A stretch of 64,000 nt of DNA from Siniperca chuatsi (Eukaryota > Chordata > Actinopteri > Centrarchiformes > Sinipercidae), in NCBI RefSeq assembly GCF_020085105.1, contig NC_058046.1, positions 13,233,175 through 13,297,174 on the forward strand, read 5' to 3'. Below are positions 40,341 through 63,876 of the stretch, piece after piece (the first letter of the stretch is position 1; each line of letters opens with the position of its first letter). Position numbers and translations under genes: made by a program. Below the pieces are notes generated by a model, which saw nothing but the letters and a program-made list of their open reading frames with translations, was not told the DNA's origin and searched no databases.

Positions 40341-43300
40341 TTATTGCCTTGGAGGCCCACCCCGACGTCTTCCTCTCCCAGGCCCAGGTTGAGGCCCCCT
40401 GGCATTTCCAGGAGGCCCTTTTCTTGGCCCTGGGGCACGGGTCACTGGAGCTCTGGGGTTTGGGGCAGCAAGTGACACATCCTTTTGCAGATTAACCCCT
40501 TTTGTTGCTGCACCTGGCTTCGTTTTGGGAGACTTGCTGCCCTTCTCAATTACGACATCTGAGAATACAGATGGAGAGCAAAAAGAGTGGTGAGGACAGT
40601 CAGGTGCTAATTGGCTGATAGCATGAGCAATAAAGGAATATGCAAGTGTATGTGTGTGTACCAGGCGCAGGTAGCTCTTCCTCAGAGGTAGGTGGTATAA
40701 GAGACTTGTTTGGCATCAGGTCCTCCAAGTCTTTCATCACTTGATTAGTGCTGTCCTTGTTGTTCCTGCGGTTCTTCTCCTCGTCTCGAGCCTAAAGTGT
40801 CCACCAATAATCCAGACAGTCATTTGTTTGATTGTATCTTGAACAAAGGAAATTTTGAAAAAAGAGGGAAACAAGGGGAAGAAAACTGAGACATCACAAG
40901 AGCAATGCTCATACTGACCATTTGCATCTTCCTTTTAAGGTCCATGTTTGCTTGTTGGTATCCTTTTGACACTGAATTCAGGTAGTAGATGGCCAGCCTG
41001 TTATACAGTATTATAAGTCTTTAAGATGATAGCCAAACAGTACAAGAAGCTTAGACACAGAGCAGTAGAAACTAAGGTCAGGCCCTCCAAGTTTTATGAC
41101 TTTACTTTCTACAATCACACACTGATTCTGGCATTTATGGACTCAATATGTATAACTTGTACTGTTTAGGCCCAAGAATAAGAAGAAGTTTAAGACACTA
41201 TGTGTGGGATTTGGAAATTTCTAACTTTGGTGCCCCCCAGTGGTAGTATCAAAAAAGACAACGCAACACATACCACTACCACACTACTAATTTTCACTGG
41301 GATAGACTCATTTCCCCACAGTCAAAATGTTATGCCATCAGAATAATTTGAAAGATGCTATAATCACTTTTTAAAAAATCTACACATAGACTGCCAATAT
41401 ATTGGCAGTGTGCAGAAGGCTCAATTTACAGAATTATAGATATACCATTTCAAAAATACATAAAATGTGAAAATATCTAAATAACTACAAAACTGTACAG
41501 ATTTTCTTGTGTAGTCAAATTTCAAGGGACATTTTAAAAGCTGAAATTCAGAACAGACTTTATAATGTTATTTCAACGCCTATTTACATTTCCCTTTCTC
41601 TCCAGTACATGGGATGTCACTTCACCTCTGACTTTGCTTCTTTTTTTTAGCAGAACCAACACTGTATTTCAGTTGATATTTGAATTATACTTACATCATG
41701 AGGAGGACAGCAGGCATGATGAGTCCAGGGTTGGTGGCATATGTAAAAATGTTCCCTATGAAGGATGGTAGATCCTGTTCTATAGTTTCCATGACCACAT
41801 CATACATCTTCTCCTGGCCACTGGGGGACAAACATGGCTCAAATACAGTACACTGTTGTGTCTAATCTTTGGAGAAAACGTGTCCACCAAATCGTAAATG
41901 TAAGACAATTTTAGTATATTTAAGCACAAATATGCTTGAGTGACCTTTGAAAATTAGCTTTAAGGTAACTTTTTAAGCTAACCCTGAGGTTACACATTAT
42001 GTTTAATATTGTAAGCGGTCCCTTAAAAACAAAGCAAATAAAATTAAACTGTCTGTGTTTTTGCCCCTGTGTACTGTCTGCTAGGGCTGCAGCAATGTAA
42101 AAAATGTATGGCATGATAACCTTACTACAAGTTACCCAACAGTAATTTATAAAATGTTCATCCTGTTGAACTTTTAGTGAACAAGACCAAAACAGGTTGC
42201 TGTCACAAAAAAGTGGCTTACTGGAGGTGTCTGTGAAAATGTATTGTTAACAAGACTAAGCTCTAGTCATGTTAGCGGCTGTGCTTAGGCACAATGGCGC
42301 TTTGAAGCTAAATGCTAATGACAGCATGCTAACATGTTCACAATGACAATGCTAACATGCTGTTAGCATGATGTTTAGCAGTACAATGTTTACAATGCCA
42401 TGGTCACCATTTTAGCTTAGCTTGTTAGCATTCTAACATTTGCAAATCAACACTAAACACAAAGTACAGTTGAGGATTATGTGGATGGCGTTAGTTTTTA
42501 TTTCACAGTATTAAGTGAAAACTGCTGGTGGCGCTAGAGTCATTAAGATTCATCCTGTGGGCACCATGAATGTCTGTACACAATTTCATGACAATAGTTG
42601 TTGAGAACGACCAACTGACAGACATACATTGTCATCCATAAAGCTGTGCTACTAGCGTTGCAAAATAAACCTCAGGAGCCTAAAATTCTAAAAACAACCA
42701 GTGCATTTGAATAAATAGGTTTTTAATTGTTTCAGATAGATACTCTGAGTTTATTAACTGACAAAAATTGTTTTAACAGGCAGAAGAATTCACCATAAAT
42801 TGTCACGACAATCTAACTTTGTAATAATTAATTCATATTTCACCATCATGTAGTGTACAACTCTTACTGACCTGAATGGCCCACAGTCGAAGGACGGGGA
42901 CAAGGTCATGATAGTATAGACAACAGGCAGCAGGCTGAGGAACAGCACAAGCAGCAACAGGCCCATGTAGAAGTTGTTGGACCGTGAGGCCTTGAAAACT
43001 CGCTCATGAGGAATGTTACAGCACATCACTGCCCAGCACTGGTAGTACATCGAGACCAGGAGACGCAAAACGTTCAGACCCACTAGACCAGGAGCATAAA
43101 ATGCTCCCATCCTGAGGAAAACAGCAAGGTTAGCAACATTATTTTAAAAACACTGTTTCATTGGCCAACTTTGAACTAATCACTTATATATATCTACTGA
43201 GTATTTCTAATTTATATTTAATGTAATTAGTTTGAGTTACTTTTGCAACAGTTTGGCTCCAATATCAACAGTCAAACAAATAATGCATCTGATTTGAAGA

Positions 43301-61900: not shown

Positions 61901-63876
61901 ACCTGAGAGGCAGAGGGAATAAATTTGAGGATGATTGTTACACCAGTAATGACTTTCTGAAAGCAGAGAAGCTGGGGAATTAAATGTGAAGCCTGCAAGA
62001 CATACAGTATGAGCTATATGATTCATCTTTCATAGTCTAGATATAATAATATAACACTACTAGACATGAAGTTTGACACTATGAGGAGAAAACATTGCTT
62101 ACTTTCAATCTCCTTGATTTTCATCTCCCATGGAATGCAGGTAGTTTTGAAGTTTTCAAAGTCCCGCTGAAACTTCATCCATTTCTACAAAATGAATATA
62201 ATTAAATAAAAATGCACAGTATATTCAATATAATTATTTGAATAATTAAATAAATAAATACTGATATCAAATCAGTCTATGATTCCTTACCTTGGTCATC
62301 ATGACCTTGTATGCATAGAGTTTCCTGCCTTTCCCTTTCCCCAAAGCTCCCTCATATTTCTCCACAAACTCCTGAGACTCCCTATAAGGAAGAAGATGAT
62401 TTGATTCAGAGTGAATTACAGCTCACATGCTGTATTACAGCTGATCCTGAGAACTCAGGGGATTTCAGGATCCTAATTCGAAGTGCGTTTCAATAATAAC
62501 GCTGTGAGTGAATTTACCGCAAAGTCACAAGTTTCTTTTTCATTGGCCAGGGTTTTCCCCTCAGACCTTGGATCAGTTTCTTCCTTTCATCCACTGCCTC
62601 CTTCAGCTTTTCCAGCTCCTCTGGTGACAGAGACTCTGGCCTCACCTCTTTCTCCTCCTTGTCCTCTACTTCTTTGTCATCTGCCTCACTTGTCTCCTGT
62701 TCTGAACTGAGGCATAAAGGAGTAGTGTGTTTAATGTCTTTGCACGTTTCTTGTGTGAATGACACGATAGTTGTGAAAAATAAAGATAAGAGATAATACC
62801 TTGTTTCCACTACTTTCTTGTGCTTTTTCTTCTTCACTTTCCTCTTTACTGTATGTTTACCTCCTTCCTCTTTGTTCTCTTCTTTTTTGGCACTTCCATG
62901 TTTCTTTTTTCCCTTGGCATTTCTTTCTTCAGCTTCTCCCTCGTCCTGCTCGATTGTTCTTGTTTTTTCATTTTTGGTATTCTTCCTCGTTTTTGCCACC
63001 TTACCACTTTTTATTTTGGCCTTCCCCTCCTCGTCCCCCTCTCTTCCTTCTGCTTCTTTCTTTCTTCTCCTGCCCCTTTCTCTTTTCTCAGGCCTGGCTT
63101 GTAATTCCTCTTCCCCTTCTCTTGCTCTAGATGCTCCTTTTCTCCTCCTATTCCCCCTCTTCTTCTTCTCTCTACCACCATCCCTTCTTTTTCTTCTGTG
63201 TCTTTCCCTCTCATGTTCCTCTCCAAAAGTGGAAACATCATCCTCGTCAACTGTAGTAAAAACGTAGAAGCCGTTTATTCCATGTTGCAATAAGCTTTAA
63301 CATGCTGCACAGATTATTTACACTCACTCCCACTCACATCATTGATACTTCAGTGATGTCACTTTCTGTCTCTGTGCTATAAACCCAATTATCTTATCAC
63401 AGTATTGTGAAGATTGTAATTGTTCTCTACTCAATTAAATCATCTCCTTTTCTCTGTCACTGATACATTTTATATCCAGGTGTAATAATCCTGTGATAAT
63501 TGGGGACACGGGTCATGACATAGGGGCAAAAGGGAGTGTACATATTATACAGGACTGGGTATGGGGGAAAAAAACTGCAGTAGAAAGCCAGATGGGTACA
63601 TGGTAGCAGCAGAGACAGTGGCACTTCTGACCGAAGTGAAGGAACAACTGTTCAAAAACAAACAGCTCCCACATGATCCCAACACCAGGTACAGGATAAA
63701 TACATTAAAGACCATTAAGAAGTCAATACTCCTCGGCCTCTCTAATAATTTTGTTGAATTAGGACAATTCTTCATGATCACCTTACCAATAGAAATGGCC
63801 TGAACCATAGGAACCTTTAGTGATTAATGTAATAACATAAGAACCCACTCACCTGCAAATCCCAGTCCAATGTCAA
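55920..63876 (-). CDS. tmc1: transmembrane channel-like protein 1, partial at 5' end, 19 exons seen
   Basis: Hair-cell mechanotransduction channel subunit. Exons in order: 63853-63876, 62800-63250, 62518-62706, 62291-62381, 62103-62184, 61796-61902, 61537-61635, 61238-61380, 61017-61161, 60730-60924, 60290-60469, 60054-60206, 58350-58478, 58107-58174, 57684-57923, 57478-57603, 57247-57325, 56491-56629, 55920-56146. About 955 codons are present. The first exon seen begins in phase 1, so the ATG exon lies to the right of the window. [41 protein letters not shown] and ALMDEIN match TMC1, not TMC2. The core runs from [18 protein letters not shown] to [12 protein letters not shown], with signature CWETMVG and [10 protein letters not shown]. 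The 451-nt exon encodes a Lys/Arg/Glu tract. The C-tail is longer than the mammalian one: a Lys/Gln-rich coil, then a Pro/Arg/His-rich end. Twelve exons equal those of tmc2 in length, showing tandem paralogy. Between 63251 and 63852 no exon is visible. Confidence 0.9.
58690..59820 (+). mobile_element. internally deleted L2-type LINE remnant
   Basis: Sense-oriented pieces of a reverse-transcriptase ORF are visible. An upstream part reads [15 protein letters not shown] (about 58995) and then, after frame breaks, text near 59150-59230 resembling the '[10 protein letters not shown]' block. After a large deletion the C-terminal part reads [19 protein letters not shown] (59287-59345) and [18 protein letters not shown] (about 59420-59475). 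The 3' end 'cgctttggacaaaagcgtct' with 'gaataaaggtaaat' is the tail typical of fish L2 LINEs and the SINEs that borrow it. It lies antisense to tmc1 in the 58479-60053 intron. Confidence 0.75.

What the first reader, a model, noticed from the sequence alone, without database searches (positions are those of the whole stretch)
40341..63876. tmc2 and tmc1 sit in direct tandem with near-identical exon maps
Human TMC1 (9q21) and TMC2 (20p13) are on different chromosomes. Here a TMC2-type and a TMC1-type gene lie head to tail, 3.4 kb apart. Twelve coding exons have exactly the same length in both (91, 82, 107, 99, 143, 195, 180, 129, 68, 240, 126, 79), and the others differ by multiples of 3. This is direct evidence of a duplication that kept its gene structure, and suggests the pair may have arisen by tandem duplication and been separated later in tetrapods, rather than by whole-genome duplication. 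The second idea is inference.
Basis: partly seen in the sequence, partly recalled or inferred. Interest (0 to 1): 0.72.

Follow-up and report, generated by a model that had tools for sequence, protein, structure and literature searches.

The report
Old tandem tmc1–tmc2 pair in fish
Two neighbouring fish genes for the hair-cell hearing channel look like a very old side-by-side duplicate pair; such tandem genes were already described in other teleost fish, but here they sit next to a retinoic-acid gene (aldh1a1) that teleosts are reported to have lost.

Summary
A tmc1-type and a tmc2-type gene lie head to tail on the minus strand, with twelve coding exons of equal length. The exon map says little about how the pair arose: a TMC3-like gene on another chromosome shares eight of the twelve lengths.

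Gene order says more. C5 reads zfand5-type, tmc1, tmc2, aldh1a1, P450, kinesin, annexin; C18 reads zfand5-type, tmc2, annexin. Six Hox9 loci indicate a teleost. So the tandem probably predates the teleost genome duplication, and C18 lost tmc1. Separation in tetrapods could not be tested.

The arrangement is in print: PMC2682703 reports tandem tmc genes between tmc1 and anxa1 in zebrafish, stickleback and medaka, calls them teleost-specific, and places them where aldh1a1 was lost. Here an intact aldh1a1-type gene coexists with the tandem, which is the less expected observation.

The parts
57247..62620 (-). tmc1-type gene, 15 modelled core coding exons (5' boundary of the first not resolved)
   Evidence: splice chain, no internal stop, 646 aa; Pfam TMC 3.2e-36
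62514..63296 (-). tmc1 N-terminal K/E-rich open frame (5' exons, boundaries not resolved)
   Evidence: open frame
55923..56674 (-). probable tmc1 C-terminal exons (boundaries not resolved)
   Evidence: open frames downstream of exon 15; assignment is inference
40919..49403 (-). tmc2-type gene, 15 modelled core coding exons (exon 8 with GC donor, exon 15 acceptor set by hand)
   Evidence: splice chain, no internal stop, 663 aa
51464..51898 (-). probable tmc2 N-terminal K/E-rich exon (boundaries not resolved)
   Evidence: open frame
40344..40791 (-). probable tmc2 C-terminal exons
   Evidence: conserved with C18 (tblastn); frames
31425..39337 (+). aldh1a1-type gene, 13 exons, intact 531-aa frame
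   Evidence: PDB searches; trees
22332..26555 (-). cytochrome P450 gene (cyp1d1 by position; subfamily not tested)
   Evidence: Pfam p450 2e-30 and 2.3e-19; position as in PMC3229566
11968..17385 (+). kinesin-type gene
   Evidence: open frames; Pfam kinesin 27.9 bits, just under the cut-off of 29.3
1608..4256 (-). annexin gene (anxa1 by position; subfamily not tested)
   Evidence: Pfam annexin; conserved on C18

Best explanation
The two genes are an ancient tandem duplicate pair, tmc1 and tmc2, each encoding a TMC protein; [quoted passage not shown] The segment corresponds to human 9q21.13, with tmc2 between the positions of TMC1 and ALDH1A1. Well supported: the block was copied by the teleost genome duplication; C5 kept tmc1, tmc2 and aldh1a1, while C18 kept tmc2 between a zfand5-type gene and an annexin. 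Inferred: one unequal duplication of a single Tmc1/2 gene in the gnathostome stem made the tandem, and TMC2 later left this block in the line to human 20p13. TMC3, on another chromosome, would be the whole-genome-duplication paralogue.
For: Same strand, neighbouring, same exon map. C18 repeats zfand5-type, tmc2, annexin in the same order, tmc2 and annexin in the same relative orientation, with no tmc1 match in the 19 kb upstream of tmc2 and no aldh match in the 30 kb searched. Genome-wide Pfam TMC gave one match on C18 among 17 (only the best candidates are scored). tmc2_C5 and tmc2_C18 are sisters at 100/99 with tmc1 outside. Protein identity is 83% for tmc2/tmc2 and 70% for tmc1 against either; four-fold sites are 42-47% identical, so both splits are ancient. 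Six Hox9 loci on six chromosomes indicate a teleost. PMC7003098 (passages): one Tmc12 gene in cyclostomes, TMC1 and TMC2 in gnathostomes. C1, which holds the TMC3-like gene, also carries an aldh1a2-type gene, in line with the ALDH1A1/ALDH1A2 neighbourhood paralogy in PMC2682703.
Against: No gar, shark, coelacanth or verified tetrapod sequence was available, so a tandem order before the teleost duplication's lineage is inferred. Fish tmc1 and human TMC1 did not form a supported clade (open fork), and the TMC3 row was flagged as a long branch. The zfand5-type gene is inverted relative to tmc2 on C18 compared with C5. Orthology of the zfand5-type and annexin genes was not tested by tree. PMC2682703 calls the extra tmc genes teleost-specific.
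Confidence: 0.82

Rival explanations
1. TMC1 and TMC2 are second-round whole-genome-duplication paralogues, and the fish adjacency is secondary.
For: They lie on different human chromosomes (recalled). PMC7003098 (passages) places the split in the gnathostome lineage, where the second genome duplication may also fall (timing recalled).
Against: Direct adjacency in the same orientation would have to arise by chance, and probably before the teleost duplication, since C18 has tmc2 between the same neighbours.
Confidence: 0.1
2. The tandem is a teleost-specific duplication of tmc1, as PMC2682703 worded it.
For: PMC2682703 section 12 and its Figure 5 legend.
Confidence: 0.04
3. Gene conversion between the two neighbours keeps parts of them alike.
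For: In exon 7, tmc1 and tmc2 of C5 match at 12 of 15 four-fold sites against 65 of 170 elsewhere, Fisher p 0.002 before allowing for the 15 exons looked at.
Confidence: 0.15

Closest known systems
[quoted passage not shown]
   Same: tandem tmc genes in the gap between tmc1 and anxa1
   Different: there no aldh1a gene lies in the gap and the copies are called teleost-specific; here an aldh1a1-type gene is present and the neighbour groups with TMC2
zebrafish tmc1, tmc2a and tmc2b (PMC5740173, passages)
   Same: one tmc1 and two tmc2 genes
   Different: zebrafish tmc2a and tmc2b are both on chromosome 5, about 39.9 cM apart; here the two tmc2 genes are on two chromosomes
human 9q21.13 (ALDH1A1, ANXA1, GDA, RORB, TMC1, ZFAND5; PMC12277573, passages)
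   Same: same kinds of neighbours; ALDH1A1 lies between TMC1 and ANXA1 (PMC2682703)
   Different: TMC2 is not among the genes listed for that human deletion

Membership tests
TMC family (PF07810) | TMC domain over the curated cut-off | tested here: met
   124.7 bits against 25 for the tmc1 core; exon matches over the cut-off for both window genes and C18
TMC2 subfamily | groups with TMC2 apart from TMC1, TMC3 outside | tested here: met
TMC1 subfamily | groups with human TMC1 | tested here: inconclusive
   open fork at the base; the tmc1 core is about as close to recalled human TMC2 (70%) as to TMC1 (68%). Position beside zfand5-type and aldh1a1-type genes favours TMC1
Teleost-duplication paralogues (C5/C18) | same gene order on two chromosomes of a teleost | tested here: met
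   three genes shared, the zfand5-type gene inverted on one copy
ALDH1A1 | groups with ALDH1A1, with a separate aldh1a2 in the genome | tested here: inconclusive
   83/90 and 83/96 with recalled human 1A1; C1:18.1M is aldh1a2-type, 80.5% to recalled human 1A2 over 293 residues. Full-length PDB search ranks ALDH1A2 first: 872 bits, 870 for the best ALDH1A1, 780 for ALDH1A3; one exon alone ranks ALDH1A1 first (80 bits; 1A3 79, 1A2 74). Adding a 65-residue fragment from C1:34.4M leaves the tree weak. Gene position favours ALDH1A1
Hair-cell transduction channel | expression and channel activity in hair cells | not testable with these tools
   known for the family from literature

The most novel reading that the evidence does not exclude
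TMC1 and TMC2, the two hearing-channel genes, are not whole-genome-duplication partners. They arose by tandem duplication in the jawed-vertebrate stem beside ALDH1A1 and stayed linked in ray-finned fish; TMC2 left this block in the lineage to tetrapods, so the adjacent fish pair could still share regulation and short gene-conversion tracts. Aldh1a1 survived in at least one teleost lineage next to them.
Probability: 0.68. Interest if true: 0.45.

Novelty: new member of a known kind. Interest (0 to 1): 0.35.

Why it matters
If true, it gives a clear origin for two hearing-channel genes and predicts that hair-cell enhancers may once have been shared. It would also correct two readings in print: the tandem tmc genes at this locus would be tmc2 rather than a teleost-specific copy, and loss of aldh1a1 would be neither complete in teleosts nor tied to the tmc tandem.

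Tried and rejected
Exon-map identity as proof of tandem origin: rejected because the TMC3-like gene shares most of it. Gene conversion as the main cause of similarity: only a weak signal in one exon. A remnant of tmc1 on C18: none in 19 kb upstream. Aldh1a1 on C18: no match in 30 kb. A PDB search with a 50-residue annexin frame did not tell the annexin type. Species identification was not attempted. This is no proof that aldh1a1 in teleosts is unreported. Twelve papers were opened, each as passages only, except that one whole section of PMC2682703 was read: PMC10746142, PMC5462536, PMC7003098, PMC9060560, PMC5740173, PMC2682703, PMC10879103, PMC3769385, PMC6974483, PMC12277573, PMC7692361, PMC3229566.

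Full report
Observation. The window is G000:C5:13233175-13297174 of a 718.8 Mb genome held in 65 contigs. Two TMC genes lie on the minus strand. Caveats: a GC donor in tmc2 exon 8, a hand-set acceptor for its 79-nt exon, an unresolved first modelled exon (103 v 144), and unresolved terminal exons.

What the exon map means. A TMC3-like gene on C1 (35751190-35787440, minus strand; 49-54% identical to the three fish tmc1/2 proteins) was chained from 12 blocks. Three blocks, at the places of exons 7 to 9, gave 195, 132 and 79 with poor boundaries, against 145/148, 195 and 180 in tmc1/2. The 91 and 82 exons had no TMC3 match in the 80 kb fetched. Blocks came from tblastn with tmc1/2 frames and the chain lightly favours boundaries near block ends, which leans towards agreement. 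The map is thus probably older than the TMC1/TMC2 split. The name TMC3 rests on distance and exclusion, not on a database call.

Age and mode. A further tmc2-type gene lies on C18 (21684297-21693971, plus strand), 83% identical to the window tmc2 and 70% to tmc1. Beyond its 3' end is an annexin (21700222-21705748, plus) and upstream a zfand5-type gene (matches 21670938-21673859, plus; its AN1 exon 92% identical over 51 residues to the C5 one). On C5 the order is zfand5-type (about 78-80.3 kb in window coordinates), tmc1, tmc2, aldh1a1-type, P450, kinesin-type, annexin. tmc2 and annexin keep their relative orientation on both chromosomes; the zfand5-type gene does not (opposite to tmc2 on C5, same as tmc2 on C18). 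On C5, SNRNP200-type and WD40 genes lie beyond, and an alpha-kinase match stands at C5:13108879, possibly TRPM6 (not tested). Hox9 searches gave six loci on six chromosomes, five over the full profile, more than the four clusters of unduplicated jawed vertebrates (recalled). C5 and C18 are thus best read as teleost-duplication partners, and the tandem as older than that event. Four-fold sites match at 77 of 185 for tmc1/tmc2 and 110 of 234 for tmc2/tmc2, near saturation.

Tree. With the TMC3-like row (440 residues, flagged as a long branch) the two fish tmc2 genes are sisters at 100/99. Fish tmc1 and human TMC1 are unresolved at the base; fish tmc1 is 68% identical to recalled TMC1 and 70% to recalled TMC2. 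This fits PMC7003098 (passages): one Tmc12 gene in cyclostomes, TMC1 and TMC2 in gnathostomes. The human rows are unverified.

Literature. [quoted passage not shown] The arrangement is therefore not new. The identity of the neighbour as tmc2, and its age, are what the present data add; zebrafish tmc2a and tmc2b are named genes already (PMC5740173, passages). PMC3229566 (passages) places CYP1D1 in the TMC1-ALDH1A1-ANXA1 region in rhesus monkey, zebrafish, anole and Xenopus. PMC12277573 (passages) lists six protein-coding genes of a human 9q21.13 deletion, TMC2 not among them.

Aldh1a1. The window holds an intact 13-exon, 531-aa ALDH1A gene at 31425-39337 (plus strand), ending in KISQKNS. One of its exons has three other matches in the genome: C1:34429681 (72%), C1:18105228 (58%) and C9:30271629 (58%). 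The C1:18.1M gene is aldh1a2-type (80.5% to recalled human ALDH1A2 over 293 residues), and the window gene groups with recalled human ALDH1A1 at 83/90 and 83/96. With the 65-residue C1:34.4M fragment added, that fragment pairs with the window gene at 89/86 and the group with human ALDH1A1 falls to 77/81. Against the reading, the full-length PDB search ranks ALDH1A2 first (872 bits; best ALDH1A1 870; ALDH1A3 780), whereas one exon alone ranks ALDH1A1 first. Sequence alone is thus not decisive; gene position, and orientation opposite to tmc and annexin (as recalled for human), are the stronger argument. If it is aldh1a1, this disagrees with its loss in stem teleosts (PMC2682703; repeated in PMC3769385, passages).

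Gene conversion. Exon 7 of the C5 pair shares 12 of 15 four-fold sites (p 0.002 against the other exons, 15 exons looked at), but a run test over the core is not significant (p 0.35). It remains a lead.

Conclusion. An ordinary pair of TMC channel genes in an ancient tandem, already described at this locus in other teleosts.

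Noticed in passing
window 31425-39337 (+): Intact aldh1a1-type gene between tmc2 and a P450 gene in a teleost, although aldh1a1 is reported lost in teleosts (PMC2682703).
   Followed up: yes
window 33929-35509 (-): Long open frame that looks like a retroelement reverse transcriptase (label recalled), inside an intron of the aldh1a1-type gene; a C1 sequence matches both this place and window coordinates 84.2-84.5 kb.
   Followed up: no
window 61017-61161 and 46388-46535 (-): Exon 7 of tmc1 and tmc2 is more alike at silent sites than the other exons; possible gene-conversion tract.
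   Followed up: partly
window 45832 (-): Exon 8 of tmc2 appears to use a GC donor where tmc1 and the C18 gene use GT.
   Followed up: no
G000:C3 24.30/24.32 Mb and 25.16/25.18 Mb (L001, L003, L004, L007): Two further pairs of TMC matches on opposite strands, arranged as divergent pairs.
   Followed up: no
L010-L012 (window coordinates about 78-103 kb): SNRNP200-type and WD40 (CIAO1-like) genes follow the zfand5-type gene; in human these are on 2q11 (recalled).
   Followed up: no
G000:C1 34429681 and 18105228: An ALDH1A-like exon 1.3 Mb from the TMC3-like gene and an aldh1a2-type gene on the same chromosome, fitting a C1 versus C5/C18 paralogy.
   Followed up: partly
G000:C18 21670938-21673859: The zfand5-type gene is inverted relative to tmc2 compared with C5.
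   Followed up: no
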